From: Bacteroidaceae bacterium | GTDB lineage: Bacteria > Bacteroidota > Bacteroidia > Bacteroidales > Bacteroidaceae | Reading direction: 5' to 3' | Length of the DNA: 32,188 nt | NCBI GenBank assembly: GCA_017936265.1 | Contig: JAGBFX010000019.1 | Location: 1 to 32,188, forward strand | In this document: positions 1 through 5,708 of the stretch, in pieces | Numbering within the stretch: the first letter of the stretch is position 1 | How the letters are laid out: every line of letters begins with the position of its first letter | Position numbers and translations under genes: made by a program | Notes under the pieces: generated by a model | Told to the model about the DNA's origin: nothing | Seen by the model: the letters and a program-made list of their open reading frames with translations, nothing else | The model's database searches: none

Positions 1-396
1 CGTCCAACGGTTTCACTTAGCGATGCTTTCCGTCTGCAATTCCGTGTTAAAGAAAACGACAACGACACCAACTGGGTAGAACGAATAAATAATGTGGGAT
101 CGGATGGCACAGATATTTTAGTGAAAGCAATGGTGAATATCATGCTTATTAATGTCTTCAAAAAGAAGGTAGCAAAGAAGAGTGGAGACTTCATTGTGCA
201 TTGTATGATGGACGAAATTGGACGATTACATCCCAATAATATTAAAGGTATTTTACAGTTTGCAAATTCACGTAATATTTATCTAATCAATAGTTCTCCA
301 ACGTCGTATAATCCATATGATTACCGCTATACTTATATGTTGAGTAAACATGGGGTGAAGACAAGAGTTGAAAAATTATTGAAACGTACTAACTAA
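1..396 (+). CDS. C-terminal end of an SMC/MukB-like ATPase, JetC-like (partial, 5' end outside window)
   Basis: Frame 1 is open from the first base, so this is the last 131 codons of a longer gene; the ATG at 94 is internal. The tail holds the second half of an ABC/SMC-type ATPase head. A degenerate signature motif (GSDGTDILVKAM, codons 32-43) is followed by a hydrophobic strand ending in Asp-Glu (FIVHCMMDEIG), which is a Walker B. A further strand (NIYLINSSP) sits where a switch region is expected. This layout is known from MukB/MksB/JetC ATPases, which work with a kleisin (JetA) and a winged-helix partner (JetB) to extrude and recognise plasmid DNA. The next gene, 9 bases downstream, is a JetD-like Toprim protein, which is the usual JetC-JetD order. 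JetA and JetB would have to lie upstream. The region is AT-richer than the genes from 1381 on, suggesting horizontal acquisition. A different SMC-like ATPase family cannot be excluded from this fragment. Confidence 0.68.
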   Translation, partial: RPTVSLSDAFRLQFRVKENDNDTNWVERINNVGSDGTDILVKAMVNIMLINVFKKKVAKKSGDFIVHCMMDEIGRLHPNNIKGILQFANSRNIYLINSSPTSYNPYDYRYTYMLSKHGVKTRVEKLLKRTN

Positions 397-405
397 TTGT
401 AATAT

Positions 406-1251
406 ATGGCAATAAGTGCATCAATAAAAGCTTTGATGACAGGTGAGCAAGTCGCCGGTTCGAAAATAAATAATAAATTACTAGAAGAACTGTTAGCTGA
501 AGGTCTGTTATTGGTTAATTCTCGTGGTTCCAGAAAATCATATCGTGCACGTGATGTCAATGCCCTAAAACGTTATCTCATTGATAAAGACGAGAACTAT
601 CGTATGTTGGAAGTTGATGTGTTAGATTCGCGTGCTTATATGGCTGCGGAAACAGGTAACTCAAAACTTGCAATAGTTCGTTCGTGCCCAGGATTTCCAG
701 TGAATAGTTATGAATCTATTGAGTGCTGGTTGAATACTGAACCCTTTGTGGTTAATCCCCAGGAAGGGTATTTCTTCTTCGTTACAGAATGGAATCATTT
801 TTCAATACCAGAGGATGTGACAGTCATCGGTATCGAAAATATGGAAAACTTTAGACTGATTCGCCAACAAAGATCGTTTTTTGGGACTTACCTCAAAACA
901 CGTAGATTGCCAACAAAAGTGCTTTTTGTTTCTCGATATCCACAATCAGTAGACTTGAGGAAGTGGCTTGTGTCTATTCCTAACCATTATCTACATTTCG
1001 GTGATTTTGATCTGGCAGGCATTCATATATTTTTATCTGAGTTTCAACGATATTTAGGTAAGGAGCGTTCCTCTTATTTAATACCAGATGATATTAAATC
1101 CAGACTAAAATCAGGTTCAAGAAAAAGATATGATGAACAGTTTTGTCGTTTCAAAGACATAAAATCTGATTGTTGCGAGTTGCAACAGTTAATAGACCTA
1201 ATTCACGCTGAACGCAAAGCATATGATCAAGAAGGCTATATATTGTCGTAA
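406..1251 (+). CDS. Toprim-domain protein, JetD-like (Wadjet-type DNA nuclease subunit)
   Basis: A 281-residue soluble protein. The N-terminal part (about residues 1-60) looks like a winged helix. The C-terminal part carries a Toprim fold: the acidic strand VIGIENMENF with Glu144, then HFGDFDLAG with Asp200 and Asp202, the Glu...Asp-x-Asp metal site of DUF2220/JetD proteins. It ends in a helix containing DQE, also seen in that family. In Wadjet systems JetD is the nuclease that cuts circular plasmid DNA once the SMC-like JetABC complex stalls on it. Family members I know are nearer 380-400 residues, so this one is compact, mainly in its N-terminal half. It starts 9 bases after the stop of the SMC-like ATPase and is probably co-transcribed with it. 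Function is inferred from motifs and gene order. Confidence 0.72.
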   Translation: MAISASIKALMTGEQVAGSKINNKLLEELLAEGLLLVNSRGSRKSYRARDVNALKRYLIDKDENYRMLEVDVLDSRAYMAAETGNSKLAIVRSCPGFPVNSYESIECWLNTEPFVVNPQEGYFFFVTEWNHFSIPEDVTVIGIENMENFRLIRQQRSFFGTYLKTRRLPTKVLFVSRYPQSVDLRKWLVSIPNHYLHFGDFDLAGIHIFLSEFQRYLGKERSSYLIPDDIKSRLKSGSRKRYDEQFCRFKDIKSDCCELQQLIDLIHAERKAYDQEGYILS

Positions 1252-1312
1252 ATTCATATAGACTTTTTATGAGTCCAATGATTCGGATAATAATAAAATT
1301 AACAATATATCC

Positions 1313-1342
1313 TTTTTCTTCACTTAGCTTTCATTATTTTTG
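1313..1342 (+). promoter_or_regulatory. Probable Bacteroidetes promoter for the OPT transporter
   Basis: TATTTTTG at 1335-1342 matches the -7 consensus TAnnTTTG. A T-run at 1313-1316 sits 18 bases upstream, where the -33 TTTG box should be, but lacks the G. The start codon follows 38 bases downstream. The stretch 1252-1380 holds no gene and marks the join between the AT-rich left edge and the core genes. Confidence 0.5.
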
Positions 1343-1380
1343 CAAAATATCATTAAATGGTAAAATAAACAGTATATAAA

Positions 1381-3366
1381 ATGAAACAGGAAAATGAAAA
1401 ACCGACGGGATTGCCGGAAAACGCGTTCCGTCCTTTGAACGAGGGTGAGGAGTACAAGCCCTTGATGTCACCTGACAAGAAGTACCCCGAGGTCAACTTC
1501 TGGTCGGTGTCGTGGGGTATCCTCATGGCGGTGCTCTTCTCGGCAGCATCGGCTTATCTTGGTCTTAAGGTGGGTCAGGTGTTCGAGGCTGCTATTCCCA
1601 TTGCAATCATTGCAGTAGGTATGTCTACTCTCGCAAAGCGCAAGGGTGCTCTCGGCGAGAATGTGATTATCCAGTCTATCGGTGCATGCTCGGGCGTTAT
1701 TGTCGCAGGTGCCATCTTTACATTGCCGGCACTTTACATCCTGCAGGCGAAGTACCCCGAGATGACCGTGAACTTCATGCAGATGTTCATCAGTTCGTTG
1801 CTTGGCGGTATACTGGGTATTCTGTTCCTTATCCCTTTCCGCAAGTACTTCGTTAAGGAGAAGCATGGCGAGTACCCTTTCCCCGAGGCTACGGCAAGTA
1901 CCCAGGTGCTTATTTCGGGCGAGAAGGGCGGTAGCCAGGCGAAGCCTCTGCTCATTGCGGGTCTCATCGGTGGTCTCTACGACTTCATCGTGGCTACCTT
2001 CGGCTGGTGGAACGAGAATGTGACTACACGTATTGTAGGCTGGGGCGAGGTGCTTGCCGACAAGGCGAAGATTGTCCTTAAAATCAATGTCGGTGCTGCG
2101 GTGCTTGGTCTCGGTTGTATCATCGGCCTCAAGTATGCAATCATCATCTGTGTGGGTTCTTTGGCTGTGTGGCTCATCATAATCCCTGGCATGTCACTGC
2201 TTTTCGGTGACCAGGTGTTGAATGCATGGAATCCCGCCATTGTACAGACTGTCAGCGAGATGTCTCCCGAGGTTATCTTCAAGGAGTATGCAAAGAGCAT
2301 CGGTATAGGCGGTATCGCCATGGCCGGTGTAATAGGTATCTTCAGGTCTTGGGGCATCATCAAGAGTGCTGTCGGTCTCGCTGCGCGTGAGATTGGCGGC
2401 AAGAAGGGTGGCGAGAATGTGGAGCGTACACAGAAGGACCTCTCGATGAAGGTTGTGCTCTTCGGCTCTATCTTCACTCTTTTGCTGGTGTTCGCGTTCT
2501 TCGTGCTTGATGTCATGAACGGTAATCTCCTGCACAGTATTGTCGCTGTCCTGCTTGTGGCTGTCATATCTTTCCTCTTCACAACCGTGGCTGCCAATGC
2601 AATCGCAATCGTGGGCTCGAACCCTGTGTCGGGTATGACGCTTATGACTCTCATCCTTGCATCGGTAATCATGGTCGCTGTAGGGCTGAAAGGCTCATCA
2701 GGCATGGTCGCTGCACTCATCATGGGCGGTGTGGTATGTACTGCACTCTCAATGGCGGGTGGCTTCATCACTGACCTCAAGATTGGCTATTGGCTGGGCA
2801 GCACCCCTGCAAAGCAGCAGACATGGAAGTTCTTGGGTACATTGGTTTCGGCCGCTACCGTTGCAGGTGTAATCATGATTCTCAACAAGACATACGGTTT
2901 CACAAGCGGCGAGCTTGCTGCGCCTCAGGCAAATGCCATGGCAGCAGTCATCGATCCGCTGATGAACGGTGTAGGTGCACCTTGGCTGCTCTATGATATA
3001 GGTGCCGCCTTGGCGCTTGTGCTTACGTTCTGTAATGTTCCTGCATTGCCTTTCGCACTCGGTATGTTCATACCTCTCGAACTTAACCTTCCTCTTCTTG
3101 TGGGTGGTATCATCAACTGGTATGTGACAACACGCAGCAATGATGCTGCATTGAATGCCGAGCGTGGCGAGAAGTGTACTCTGCTTGCATCGGGTTTCAT
3201 CGCCGGTGGTGCGCTTATGGGTGTGCTCAGTGCCGGTCTCCGTTTCGGCGGTATCAACATGATAAACGAGGCATGGCTTGCATGCTACTGGAGCGAGGCC
3301 ATTGCCATTGTGGCATACGCTTTGCTCATCATCTACCTTGTGAGAGCAAGCATGAAGGTAAAGTGA
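1381..3366 (+). CDS. OPT-family oligopeptide transporter
   Basis: A 661-residue inner-membrane protein with about 14-16 hydrophobic segments. The N-terminal tail is short and cytoplasmic (residues 1-40), followed by the first helix (WGILMAVLFSAASAYLGLK). The loop motif HGEYPFPEATAS (residues 162-173) and NPVSGMTLM further on are hallmarks of the bacterial branch of the OPT family. These proteins import oligopeptides, and some eukaryotic relatives carry metal chelates; the substrate here cannot be read from sequence. Length is normal for bacterial members. It stands alone as a plus-strand unit with its own promoter, and it ends at a long palindrome facing the convergent patatin gene. Large opposite-strand open frames within it are by-products of its codon use. 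Confidence 0.93.
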   Translation: MKQENEKPTGLPENAFRPLNEGEEYKPLMSPDKKYPEVNFWSVSWGILMAVLFSAASAYLGLKVGQVFEAAIPIAIIAVGMSTLAKRKGALGENVIIQSIGACSGVIVAGAIFTLPALYILQAKYPEMTVNFMQMFISSLLGGILGILFLIPFRKYFVKEKHGEYPFPEATASTQVLISGEKGGSQAKPLLIAGLIGGLYDFIVATFGWWNENVTTRIVGWGEVLADKAKIVLKINVGAAVLGLGCIIGLKYAIIICVGSLAVWLIIIPGMSLLFGDQVLNAWNPAIVQTVSEMSPEVIFKEYAKSIGIGGIAMAGVIGIFRSWGIIKSAVGLAAREIGGKKGGENVERTQKDLSMKVVLFGSIFTLLLVFAFFVLDVMNGNLLHSIVAVLLVAVISFLFTTVAANAIAIVGSNPVSGMTLMTLILASVIMVAVGLKGSSGMVAALIMGGVVCTALSMAGGFITDLKIGYWLGSTPAKQQTWKFLGTLVSAATVAGVIMILNKTYGFTSGELAAPQANAMAAVIDPLMNGVGAPWLLYDIGAALALVLTFCNVPALPFALGMFIPLELNLPLLVGGIINWYVTTRSNDAALNAERGEKCTLLASGFIAGGALMGVLSAGLRFGGINMINEAWLACYWSEAIAIVAYALLIIYLVRASMKVK

Positions 3367-3385: not shown

Positions 3386-3433
3386 TTGAACAATAAAAGC
3401 AACAATCACGTGATTGTTGCTTTTATTGTTCAA
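3386..3433. terminator. Perfect 48-base palindrome, likely bidirectional terminator
   Basis: Two 24-base arms (3386-3409 and 3410-3433) are exact reverse complements with no loop other than the central CACGTG. The T-rich stretch lies within the arms. It sits between the stop of the OPT gene (3366) and the convergent patatin gene, and includes the patatin stop codon (3423-3425) and its last codons. Confidence 0.75.
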
Positions 3434-5708
3434 TGAAACGTTCATGGAACATGAACCAACCGATAGTGATACCGAAATTGACGCTGTTTCTGTGCGAACT
3501 GTAATAGTTGGCAAATGCGCTAACTGATATGTTCGAGAACTTTGCTGCGACAGTGAAATCGCCTATGTACTGGAAGTCGTTGAAACGCTTTCCCGCATAA
3601 TAGGCTGTACCGTCGCTCTTCTCTTTAATCATACGGTAGGGCACAAAGGCATAGAAGCTGGGGCGTATCTGCAGAAAATTGTTCAGCTTGATGATCGGAG
3701 TGACACCACCTGCAACGAACTGGTTGGCACGGAACTTTGGGTCGTAGTTGAAGAGGCTGTTCATGGTGGGTGTGAAGGATCCGGCCTGCATCATTGTCGA
3801 CTGATAGGTGTGTGACAATCTACGGGTTGAATAGAAGAGCTGAAGGTATGTACCCAACGTCAGTTTCTTGCCCACATCGAAGTGGTCGCGGCGTATGTAT
3901 CCCAACTGTAGCCATGATTGCTCAATCCTGTTTGTCGGCAACTCTGTGATACCGCGGTATTTCTCGGTGCCGGTAATGAACTGTGCCGTCAGCGACTCGT
4001 ACATTCCCGATGTGGAGTATACCTTGGCATCGAGAGTGTTGCCTTCGAACCTTATCCCTGTGCCATAAAGTACCATGTCGTTCCTGTCATATTCAGGTGT
4101 GTTCAGGTCGAGTATGTTCGATGGCATATACTCATCCTTGATGTCGGCTATGCCTATGCTGAACTCTGCCTTATGCTGGCTCAGGAACGGAAGTATGAAC
4201 TTTACCTTCGCGAACATCTCGCGCTGGTGGTTGAGTGCCATTGAGTTCTCCATCGAGAAGGGGTACTTCATGTTGAAGTAGTCAATGGTGGAGTATGAGC
4301 CGAGGAACTTCATCGATACGGGCAACTTGGTCAGGAAATCTATACGTGCCGATATCTGGGCATTGTTGTAAACCTTACCGAACTGGCCGTCAAGGATGAA
4401 CTCCTTAGCGTGGTTGTCGAGGTTGCGGTAATGTAGCCCGAAGTAGAGCTGGTTCGACACGTTGGTAGCCATGTTGCCACCCAACTTGAGTGTGAATGGC
4501 GGGTTGATGCTTGCATCAATGTAGAGCGTGTATGTGCTGTCGGCCTCATTATATACCGCATGCGGGATGATGGACTCGATGTTGTTGCCCGACATGAGGC
4601 TGTAGTATCCCTTCTTGCACTCATCGTACGTAAACGTGTCGCCGAACTTGCGGAATTCATTAGCGATAGACCTCTGCTGTTCCTTTGTGACACCGCTGAC
4701 AACCACGTCTCTGAACTTCAGCTCGGGTATACGTTTCTTAAATTTCTTGCGGCTGTCGGCGAGCAGGGTGCTGTCACGTCGTGTGCGGATACGTCCCTTA
4801 ATGGAATCTATTCTTTCCATTGTATGTATGTATCCGGCATCTACTATCTCATCAATCTTGTGGAAATCGAGAAGGTTCACTCCCTTGGCGTCGATATTGA
4901 GCAGGAAACCATCCTTGTCGCTTATGGTGTAGTCACTTCTGTTTATAATCATGTTCTGCACTTGGCTCATGATGTCCCTCTCATCGGGTGGTGGGGGATT
5001 GTCGCTGACTACACTTCCAATAATCATGTCCGGGCTGAACTCATCTTTCATTATGTCAAGCGGGAAGTTGTTGTATATGCCTCCATCATATAGCAGTATG
5101 CCATCCTTCCTTATCGGCTTAAAGAAAAACGGATAGCTCATTGAGGCGCGTACCGCATCGCCGAGGTCACCATTGGAAAAAACGACCTGCTTCTTCTTGT
5201 GTACGTCTGCAGCCACGCAACGGAAGGGAATCATCAGGCTGTCGAAGTCGCTCTTGCATGCTGCGTTTGCGCCGGCGAATATCTCCATGAATCCAAGGTT
5301 CATGGGAGTCGCACTGATAAGGTTGACTGTGGGCTTGAGAATGCGCAACGAATCCTTTATGTCGAAATGTATGCTCACCATGTCAGGGACATCCTTCGGG
5401 CGTTTGAAGTAGAACATGTACTTGCGGTCCATGGTTCCTGTGTACCAGCGTTGGAAATCGCTGCTTTTCATTACGGCAATCATCTCATCCGGAGTATATC
5501 CCATGGAGTAGAGCGCCGCTACTATGGCACCCATTGATGTTCCTGTTGCATAGTCAATGGGTATGTTCTCCTCCTCAAGTGCCTTGATTACTCCTATGTG
5601 GGCGAGTCCCTTTGCGCCGCCACCACTCATGACAAGTCCGACCTTCTGCTGCGCATTGAGCAGGGAAGGTAGGAGTGCGATGAGTATTATGGCAAGCAGT
5701 TTTTTCAT
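3423..5708 (-). CDS. Patatin-like phospholipase with C-terminal outer-membrane barrel (PlpD-like)
   Basis: A 761-residue exported protein. Residues 1-20 are a signal peptide (ends LLNAQ). The patatin domain follows (about 20-310). It has the oxyanion loop GGGAKG (29-34), the nucleophile Ser58 in GTSMG and the catalytic Asp208 in DGG, so the Ser-Asp dyad is complete. A short POTRA-like segment comes next (about 330-405), then a long stretch of alternating beta strands (about 410-761) like a BamA/Omp85 barrel. This is the layout of type Vd autotransporters such as PlpD and FplA, in which the barrel anchors or exports the lipase. The likely role is phospholipid hydrolysis at the cell surface or in the periplasm. 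It is transcribed alone, away from the addB terminator. Confidence 0.9.
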   Translation of the reverse strand: MKKLLAIILIALLPSLLNAQQKVGLVMSGGGAKGLAHIGVIKALEEENIPIDYATGTSMGAIVAALYSMGYTPDEMIAVMKSSDFQRWYTGTMDRKYMFYFKRPKDVPDMVSIHFDIKDSLRILKPTVNLISATPMNLGFMEIFAGANAACKSDFDSLMIPFRCVAADVHKKKQVVFSNGDLGDAVRASMSYPFFFKPIRKDGILLYDGGIYNNFPLDIMKDEFSPDMIIGSVVSDNPPPPDERDIMSQVQNMIINRSDYTISDKDGFLLNIDAKGVNLLDFHKIDEIVDAGYIHTMERIDSIKGRIRTRRDSTLLADSRKKFKKRIPELKFRDVVVSGVTKEQQRSIANEFRKFGDTFTYDECKKGYYSLMSGNNIESIIPHAVYNEADSTYTLYIDASINPPFTLKLGGNMATNVSNQLYFGLHYRNLDNHAKEFILDGQFGKVYNNAQISARIDFLTKLPVSMKFLGSYSTIDYFNMKYPFSMENSMALNHQREMFAKVKFILPFLSQHKAEFSIGIADIKDEYMPSNILDLNTPEYDRNDMVLYGTGIRFEGNTLDAKVYSTSGMYESLTAQFITGTEKYRGITELPTNRIEQSWLQLGYIRRDHFDVGKKLTLGTYLQLFYSTRRLSHTYQSTMMQAGSFTPTMNSLFNYDPKFRANQFVAGGVTPIIKLNNFLQIRPSFYAFVPYRMIKEKSDGTAYYAGKRFNDFQYIGDFTVAAKFSNISVSAFANYYSSHRNSVNFGITIGWFMFHERFIEQ

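What the first reader, a model, noticed from the sequence alone, without database searches (positions are those of the whole stretch)
1..1251. Edge of a JetC/JetD-like (Wadjet-type) plasmid-defence operon
An SMC-like ATPase tail with a degenerate signature and Walker B is followed after 9 bases by a Toprim protein with the Glu144...Asp200-x-Asp202 metal site. This order is that of JetC-JetD. The region is AT-richer than the core genes after 1381. Visible motifs are direct; the system assignment is inferred from family knowledge, and JetA and JetB are not in view.
Basis: partly seen in the sequence, partly recalled or inferred. Interest (0 to 1): 0.72.

Follow-up and report, generated by a model that had tools for sequence, protein, structure and literature searches.

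The report
Divergent short-nuclease Wadjet-type plasmid-defence operon
The contig begins inside the last two genes of what looks like a bacterial DNA-reeling machine with an attached DNA-cutting enzyme, a distant cousin of the known Wadjet anti-plasmid systems that annotation tools did not name, and some relatives lack the cutter and may use the machine for something else.

Summary
Window 1-396 is the last 131 codons of an SMC-type ATPase (Pfam DUF3584); nine bases later, 406-1251 is an intact 281-aa Toprim protein (DUF7281). The contig starts here, and no other piece of the operon was found in the assembly. Relatives supply the rest: of 96 fetched loci, 83 hold four genes A-B-C-D, kleisin-like A (about 399 aa), MksE/JetB-like B (about 185), SMC C (about 1218), Toprim D (about 283); four of the 96 duplicate others. 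A's model resembles JetA and MukF, B matches Pfam MksE in 30 of 30, D keeps E144, D200, D202 in 50 of 50 and matches only JetD models in PADLOC, weakly. So it is a JetABCD/MksBEFG-type system, most likely cutting small circular DNA. It is a divergent branch: D is about 100-120 aa shorter than type I JetD, and neither PADLOC nor the RefSeq annotations seen name it. Three proteobacterial plasmids carry order C-B-A-D. The operon is absent beside the same transporter gene in 12 of 12 same-genus loci inspected. Five relatives lack D, at least four changes on the C tree; one Parabacteroides distasonis genome has both forms. Anti-plasmid action is inferred, not shown.

The parts
1..396 (+). C-terminal 131 codons of gene C (SMC-type ATPase, JetC/MksB-like), cut by the contig's left end
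   Evidence: DUF3584 E=1.8e-9; 99% identical to residues 1086-1216 of a complete 1216-aa C in a same-genus genome
94..114 (+). ABC signature-like motif VGSDGTD
   Evidence: V, G, S, G, T and D invariant in 32 full-length C proteins; coordinates counted
190..222 (+). Walker B motif FIVHCMMDEIG
   Evidence: H, C, M, M, D, E, I, G invariant in 32 C proteins
406..1251 (+). Gene D, 281-aa winged-helix plus Toprim protein (JetD/MksG-like, Pfam DUF7281), intact
   Evidence: AF2 model pLDDT 88.6; only PDB fold match under E 0.001 is Spo11 8urq_A, E=2.8e-4, prob 0.99, TM-score 0.37
418..588 (+). N-terminal winged-helix-like domain of D (residues 5-61)
   Evidence: secondary structure of the AF2 model; winged-helix repressors among the Foldseek matches
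835..837 (+). Glu144 of D, predicted metal ligand (motif GIENMENF)
   Evidence: invariant in 50 of 50; aligned with the invariant E of type I JetD
1003..1011 (+). Asp200-x-Asp202 of D, predicted metal ligands (motif GDFDLAG)
   Evidence: invariant in 50 of 50; aligned with the DxD of type I JetD
1231..1233 (+). Glu276 of D in motif YDQEG, counterpart of the C-terminal LEQE of JetD/MksG
   Evidence: invariant in 50 of 50; alignment with type I JetD; the two conserved glutamates of JetD were proposed as nucleophiles according to passages of PMC10123090
1287..1401 (.). Right-hand junction of the acquired segment and upstream region of the neighbouring transporter gene
   Evidence: 12 same-genus loci match the window only from a point between 1329 and 1380 onward; G029 carries a 97% copy of 1287-1401 beside an ATPase gene that elsewhere precedes gene A

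Best explanation
Window 1-1251 is the 3' end of a four-gene operon A-B-C-D that encodes an SMC-type complex (kleisin A, KITE/MksE-like B, SMC ATPase C) with a partner Toprim endonuclease D. It is a divergent branch of the Wadjet (JetABCD = MksBEFG) group. Proposed mechanism, inferred from characterised type I systems: the ABC motor loads on DNA and reels it in with ATP; on a small closed circle extrusion runs to completion and the bent DNA is passed to the D dimer, whose winged-helix and Toprim domains, with E144 and D200/D202 binding metal, cut both strands. Shown here: gene set and order in relatives, ATPase and nuclease motifs, predicted folds of A and D, regular association of D with ABC, patchy distribution. 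Inferred: the upstream genes in this organism, assembly into one complex, loop extrusion, plasmid cleavage.
For: Conserved operon: 83 of 96 fetched loci hold A, B, C and D (L019/L052, L020/L045, L021/L050 and L022/L100 are the same places, and three of the 83, L060, L071 and L105, have C in two frames). C has Walker A (GTQGVGKST) and Walker B in 32 of 32 aligned and spans DUF3584 nearly end to end. B matches Pfam MksE in 30 of 30. A's model has as its four best PDB matches an E. coli JetABCD chain (8q72_E, prob 0.91) and MukBEF or MukEF chains (9gm7_C, 7nz2_C1, 3euh_B, prob 0.93-0.97), taken as JetA and MukF from their lengths. D matches a PADLOC JetD1 model at E<=0.001 in up to 36 of 50 (per model), and no other PADLOC family is matched at that level. 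Profile-profile comparison with nine or ten MksE-containing operons of the phylum, most of them classical Wadjet: B E=2e-7 over its whole length, C ATPase head 5e-11, D Toprim 4e-4, A 5e-3; one unrelated pair as control 0.52. D follows C in 20 of 22 assessable C rows of an order-wide sample. C is present in 24 of 393 genomes of the order, and the operon is absent beside the same transporter gene in 12 of 12 same-genus loci inspected, a patchiness usual for defence genes.
Against: A, B and most of C are not in the window's own assembly, so the operon's completeness in this organism is unproven. Sequence links to known JetA and JetD are weak: hhalign probability 6.9% for A and 35% for D. None of the four profiles hit a JetABCD chain in the PDB by sequence. 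No fold match of A reaches E 0.001 and its model is of modest confidence (pLDDT 75.7, pTM 0.43). JetD structures are not among the 50 fold matches shown for D, and the Spo11 match has a TM-score of only 0.37. No functional data exist for this branch. Five relatives lack D, so ABC may have another role.
Confidence: 0.8

Rival explanations
1. An MksBEF-type chromosome organiser: ABC works mainly on the host chromosome, and D is an auxiliary or regulatory Toprim protein rather than a plasmid-cutting effector.
For: B of L052 fits the Pfam MksE model better (137.8 bits) than any B found in the phylum sample (at most 94.9 bits). ABC sets without D and with both Walker motifs exist in five relatives. 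One P. distasonis genome has both a D-less ABC, collinear with a place among housekeeping genes in another strain, and a separate ABCD.
Against: D accompanies C in 20 of 22 assessable rows and keeps its predicted metal ligands in 50 of 50. The system is rare (24 of 393 genomes) and lies at different sites in the window's genome and its closest relative G013, unlike a chromosome organiser.
Confidence: 0.12
2. A defence system whose trigger is phage or replicating foreign DNA rather than plasmids (as in Lamassu or Gabija), using the same SMC plus nuclease parts.
For: In six loci an ATPase of a PADLOC phage-defence-candidate family (PDC-S01; one of the six was scanned) lies directly upstream. The rearranged cousin L150 has a C that weakly matches LmuB (E=2e-4).
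Against: Lamassu lacks a kleisin and MksE pair as far as I recall; here both are present. D matches no OLD/Gabija family.
Confidence: 0.1
3. A decaying remnant in this particular genome: the contig end reflects a broken operon.
For: Only the 3' part was found, and three of the 83 ABCD loci have C split into two frames.
Against: D is full length with all motifs, and the first 360 bases of the window are 92-100% identical, by 60-base bins, to an intact operon. A contig end inside a gene is common in draft MAGs.
Confidence: 0.08

Closest known systems
Wadjet type I, JetABCD = C. glutamicum MksBEFG (PMC10123090 and PMC10586767, passages read)
   Same: Kleisin, KITE, SMC and Toprim genes in one operon; D ligands E...DxD plus a C-terminal QE motif; homology detectable for B, the C head and the D Toprim
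   Different: D is 281 aa against 380-403 aa in seven classical operons of the same phylum, with a much shorter N-terminal part; A is about 399 aa against 481-506; the C signature is GSDGT instead of SGGQ; PADLOC gives only weak partial matches
MukBEF / MksBEF condensins
   Same: A's model matches MukF-type chains; B belongs to Pfam MksE; C belongs to DUF3584
   Different: This operon carries a Toprim gene in most cases; five relatives lack it
Spo11 / topoisomerase VI-A
   Same: D's predicted winged-helix plus Toprim fold: only PDB match under E 0.001 is 8urq_A, TM-score 0.37; a Pseudomonas D matches TOP6A-Spo11_Toprim at 1.8e-4, just under the cut-off
   Different: D sits in an SMC operon; whether it has a catalytic tyrosine was not examined

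Membership tests
Wadjet/JetABCD/MksBEFG group | Four co-directional genes: kleisin, KITE, SMC, Toprim | tested here: met
   83 of 96 relative loci; in the window itself only the C tail and D can be seen
Wadjet/JetABCD/MksBEFG group | JetC/MksB-type SMC ATPase with Walker A and B | tested here: met
   32 of 32 full-length relatives keep both motifs; DUF3584 2e-49 for L052 C; the window holds only the C-terminal part with Walker B
Wadjet/JetABCD/MksBEFG group | JetB/MksE-type KITE subunit | tested here: met
   in relatives: Pfam MksE in 30 of 30; hhalign to JetB of other operons E=2e-7
Wadjet/JetABCD/MksBEFG group | JetA/MksF-type kleisin | tested here: inconclusive
   in relatives: JetABCD and MukBEF chains are the four best fold matches (prob 0.91-0.97) of a modest-confidence model, but none reaches E 0.001; by sequence only E=5e-3, prob 6.9%
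Wadjet/JetABCD/MksBEFG group | JetD/MksG Toprim with Glu and DxD metal site | tested here: met
   50 of 50 keep E, D, D; 36 of 50 match one JetD1 model at E<=0.001
Wadjet types I, II or III as modelled in PADLOC | All four subunits match the type's models | tested here: not met
   no Jet match for A, weak partial matches for B, C and D (two operons scanned); no cut-offs are given by the tool; type II and III operons were not available for direct comparison (searches gave only weak matches, mostly in type I operons)
Wadjet type I | Long N-terminal CAP domain of JetD | tested here: not met
   D has about 100-120 aa less than JetD of seven classical operons; the model shows only a small winged helix and a small beta region before the Toprim
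Wadjet/JetABCD/MksBEFG group | Restricts small circular plasmids by ATP-dependent cleavage | not testable with these tools
   needs an experiment
OLD/Gabija or DnaG-type Toprim proteins | D matches an OLD, GajA or primase family | tested here: not met
   no such match in Pfam or PADLOC (50 members) or, for the window's D, in NCBIfam
Lamassu | LmuB-type SMC with LmuA/LmuC and no kleisin-MksE pair (recalled) | tested here: not met
   MksE-type B and a kleisin-like A are present in relatives; a LmuB match of only 0.57 for L015 C

The most novel reading that the evidence does not exclude
The window's operon belongs to an unnamed short-nuclease branch of the Wadjet group that spans Bacteroidota and, in another gene order, Proteobacteria. 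Within it the nuclease has been lost repeatedly, leaving an SMC complex without a cutter that at least some Bacteroidota (e.g. Parabacteroides distasonis) keep among housekeeping genes as a chromosome organiser. That could be part of the answer to which SMC complex works in Bacteroidota that were reported to lack a known condensin, and a natural defence-to-housekeeping series.
Probability: 0.25. Interest if true: 0.72.

Novelty: new variant of a known kind. Interest (0 to 1): 0.5.

Why it matters
If it restricts plasmids, it is a barrier to genetic work in gut Bacteroidales that PADLOC 2.0.0 models match only weakly and the RefSeq records seen label as hypothetical. The small D would be a simpler nuclease for studying how a loop extruder hands DNA to a cutter. 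The repeated absence of D, with both forms in one P. distasonis genome, makes the proposed passage between plasmid defence and chromosome organisation directly testable in a phylum for which one Hi-C study found no known condensin in the two Bacteroidetes species it examined (PMC10197239, passages read).

Tried and rejected
OLD nuclease, primase and Gabija readings of D: no family match. Extension of the operon in the own genome: only this fragment found. Sequence search of the PDB with profiles of A, B, C and D: no JetABCD hit; the few matches (designed protein, apolipoprotein, photosystem subunit, STN1) were taken as chance. Types II and III for comparison: models PDLC00556 and PDLC00591 over 277 genomes each rang in 6 and 18 genomes, weakly, mostly in type I operons, so the branch could not be placed on a tree against all types. 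DUF7281 itself, searched in 296 genomes of the phylum, rang only in the window's genome and in none of 14 controls, though profiles of the family find many more members. Phage records and viral contigs: no relative of D (E 1e-5, 32 pattern matches, none confirmed). The gene directly upstream of A was considered as a fifth part and rejected because its identity changes between loci. The first C tree took a wrong long protein for three rows (L084, L025, L238); it was rebuilt with C chosen by profile, and only the rebuilt tree is used. A first profile labelling without --max showed no matches and was repeated with --max. Alignments are subsets: of 66 loci (L031-L110) with all four genes as single ORFs, 50 were kept as non-redundant; D rows drop L102; A rows drop L047, L077, L080, L094; C and B rows are smaller picks plus four plasmid-collection records. 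A paper search for Wadjet with Bacteroidales genera was uninformative: none of the 15 listed papers contains the word Wadjet.

Full report
OBSERVATION. The window is the start of contig G000:C39 of a 2.40-Mb draft genome in 62 contigs. Bases 1-396 are the end of a frame open to the left (131 aa), and 406-1251 encode a complete 281-aa protein. Pfam puts the first in DUF3584 near the C-terminal end of the profile (E=1.8e-9) and the second in DUF7281 (E=6.3e-8). PADLOC gives only weak JetD1 matches to the second protein (best E=2e-4) and none to the first; NCBIfam gives none. The first 1251 bases have 36.5% G+C, the second lowest of 155 overlapping stretches of that size in the window.

THE MISSING GENES. 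A same-genus genome (G013) has a C protein 99% identical to the window's fragment. A scan of genome contigs with D gave 111 pattern matches and 102 relatives, of which the best 80 were kept. Together with 12 regions of relatives and four plasmid-collection records, 96 loci were checked with the proteins of one complete operon. 95 gave a match and 83 hold A, B, C and D; the others hold CD (8), D (2), BC (1) or BCD (1), and one locus (L109, D cut by the contig end) gave none. Four of the 96 duplicate others, and in three of the 83 C is split into two frames. In the loci printed neighbouring genes mostly overlap or lie within about 15 bases, as in a translationally coupled operon (not counted). 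No second piece of the operon was found in the window's genome, so its own A and B remain unseen.

WHAT THE PROTEINS ARE. C (about 1218 aa) has Walker A GTQGVGKST, Walker B HCMMDEIG and an unusual signature VGSDGTD (one position variable), conserved in 32 aligned members. B matches Pfam MksE in 30 of 30. A has no Pfam match over a cut-off in the two scanned. The AlphaFold2 model of A of L052 (pLDDT 75.7) has as its four best PDB matches a chain of E. coli JetABCD and chains of MukBEF or MukEF, prob 0.91-0.97, but none reaches E 0.001; I take these chains as JetA and MukF from their lengths. The model of the window's D (pLDDT 88.6) is a winged helix followed by a Toprim domain; the only PDB match with E below 0.001 is Spo11 (TM-score 0.37). 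E144, D200, D202 and E276 are invariant in 50 of 50 D proteins. In a wider set of 107 D proteins a pattern for the EN, DxD and QE motifs matched 101; the six that failed it keep these residues by eye. The same residues align with those of type I JetD, and in C. glutamicum MksG changing E236 or D279, the residues predicted to bind the ion, drastically impaired cleavage (PMC10123090, passages); that these correspond to E144 and D200 is my inference.

RELATION TO KNOWN WADJET. Pfam MksE is found in 41 of 296 genomes of the phylum; 14 regions were fetched. By size, seven of the 14 (L144, L147, L148, L151, L152, L154, L156) are classical four-gene operons: JetA 481-506, JetB 191-233, JetC 1133-1171, JetD 380-403 aa; three are variants (L143, L149, L150); three are cut or broken (L145, L146, L155); and L153 shows no JetD-sized gene after C. 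Three JetD proteins of the classical set match PADLOC JetD1 models strongly (L144, L148, L151). Profile-profile comparison with alignments of nine or ten of these operons (L143 and L149 included) gives E=2e-7 for B (full length, prob 93.5), 5e-11 for the C head (97.1), 4e-4 for the D Toprim (35) and 5e-3 for A (6.9), against 0.52 for one unrelated pair. Of 50 D proteins, 36 match one JetD1 model at E<=0.001 and 23 another, and no other PADLOC family is matched. So the operon is homologous to Wadjet but far from the modelled types; D is about 100-120 aa shorter than the classical JetD. A tblastn search with C found 13 plasmid records. Of the five from Proteobacteria or Salinibacter I looked at four: Vibrio breoganii, Pseudomonas sp. 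Leaf58 and Rhodoferax plasmids have a four-gene set in order C-B-A-D, whose D proteins match DUF7281 strongly (4e-19 to 1e-22), though their A is assigned only by place and size. A Salinibacter plasmid (A-B-C-D with an 879-aa C and a 231-aa D) and G335 (C-D-A-B) look like further, more distant variants; DUF7281 matches the Salinibacter D above its cut-off and the G335 D below it. In the eight annotated records seen, the genes are called 'ATP-binding protein' or 'hypothetical protein'.

DISTRIBUTION AND MOBILITY. Of 150 relatives 13 have D, the own genome included; C is strong in 15 of the same 150, with four further weak matches that I take for coiled-coil similarity. In an order-wide sample 24 of 393 have C. 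In the same genus only G013 and the window's genome have D, and G013 carries the operon on another contig than its copy of the window's neighbouring transporter gene. Twelve same-genus loci around that transporter gene were inspected: none matches the window's 1-1286, and similarity starts at a point between 1329 and 1380, except one short copy in G029; two of the twelve show less than 1 kb upstream. G029 carries a 97% copy of window 1287-1401 next to an ATPase gene 92.5% identical (414 aa) to the one that directly precedes A in L032, a family found at that place in six loci, so the site has exchanged pieces of such a segment.

LOSS OF D. In the order-wide sample D lies beside C in 20 of 22 rows where this can be judged (window included); G056 and G503 lack it, and five rows are cut by contig ends. 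In G056 no remnant of D was found. Three public records also have A-B-C without D: P. distasonis (L239) and Persicobacter plasmids L238 and L259. A profile search of the 14-20 kb around all five, and around the P. distasonis NM39_I3 copy, finds A, B and C with both Walker motifs and no D. On a tree of 42 C proteins the presence or absence of D needs four changes (quick method, long outgroup branches; the label is no more clustered than in 87 of 500 shuffles; change counts cannot by themselves tell loss from gain, but the outgroup has D). P. distasonis strain NM39_I3 has both an ABCD and a D-less ABC whose C is 97.4% identical to that of L239, with the surrounding DNA about 97-98% identical and collinear; in L239 the neighbours include NAD synthase, gcvT and pepT. 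Of the 21 genomes, G776 (Phocaeicola faecium) has two ABCD sets. This fits the idea, stated in a review for P. aeruginosa MksBEF, that such complexes arise from JetABCD by loss of the nuclease (PMC10586767, passages). It may bear on a report that found no known condensin in B. caecimuris and M. intestinale (PMC10197239, passages), but C was found in only 24 of 393 genomes of the order, so it cannot be their general condensin.

LITERATURE. DUF7281 is in no paper of the held library. DUF3584 is in five, judged by their titles not about this; the one opened names it once in a table for a plasmid 'chromosome segregation ATPase' of Methanoperedens (PMC9674854, one passage). Searches for MksG with Wadjet, MksBEF with Bacteroidetes, Wadjet types (30 of 48 listed), MksB with Wadjet, subtype and Bacteroidota, MksB/E/F with Wadjet and JetD with Toprim (12 of 24 listed) showed no description of a short-nuclease branch in titles or abstract starts. 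The library lacks most subscription papers, and two key papers were not held. The broad catalogue behind PMC7617805 kept only MksF of 400-1200 aa (passage), which would drop the many A proteins of 399 aa; its list was not read, so this branch may be in it.

JUDGEMENT. It is a new variant of a known kind. Function as plasmid defence is the best-supported reading but rests on homology.

Noticed in passing
L239:6200-11630; L285; L289; L176; L260; L238; L259: A-B-C sets without the nuclease gene D but with both Walker motifs in C; P. distasonis NM39_I3 has both forms.
   Followed up: partly
L032:1996-3240, L037, L042, L071, L072, L052 (partial); L038-L041 and L044: An ATPase gene directly upstream of A in 11 loci (two kinds; the one of L032 matches PADLOC candidate PDC-S01 at 2e-105); other loci have other genes there, so a swapping accessory position.
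   Followed up: partly
window 1-1251 against L052:5890-7400: Mosaic similarity by 60-base bins: DNA 88-100% identical in the C tail, 78-98% in the first third of D, then 60-77% (one bin 90%) after window position 660, as if the Toprim half had been exchanged.
   Followed up: partly
L079:3722-5356: A 544-aa gene that by eye looks like an AlbA/Schlafen-type ATP-binding regulator is inserted between B and C and ends with the residues NEDEIPE also found at the end of B; no Rfam element in the locus.
   Followed up: partly
L143:3735-9826 and L149:6501-12623: Two other MksE-containing four-gene sets with a 305- or 317-aa Toprim-like protein that PADLOC does not or hardly match; possibly another unlabelled branch.
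   Followed up: partly
L210:8212-9898 (G029): A 97% copy of window 1287-1401, including the start of the transporter gene, lies about 1.6 kb upstream of the intact transporter gene, with a 408-aa BspA-like ORF (named by eye) between.
   Followed up: partly
L258:3169-8016: An A-B-C fragment in a Bacteroides finegoldii record beside an annotated class A beta-lactamase gene; C is cut by the record's start, so D cannot be judged.
   Followed up: no
L153:6706-12213: A classical-looking A-B-C set with an 822-aa gene instead of a JetD-sized gene after C; possibly another nuclease loss outside the window's branch.
   Followed up: no
window 1381-3366 and 3423-5708: By eye, an OPT-type oligopeptide transporter gene and, on the other strand, a patatin-like phospholipase gene follow the operon; ordinary neighbours, families not searched.
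   Followed up: no
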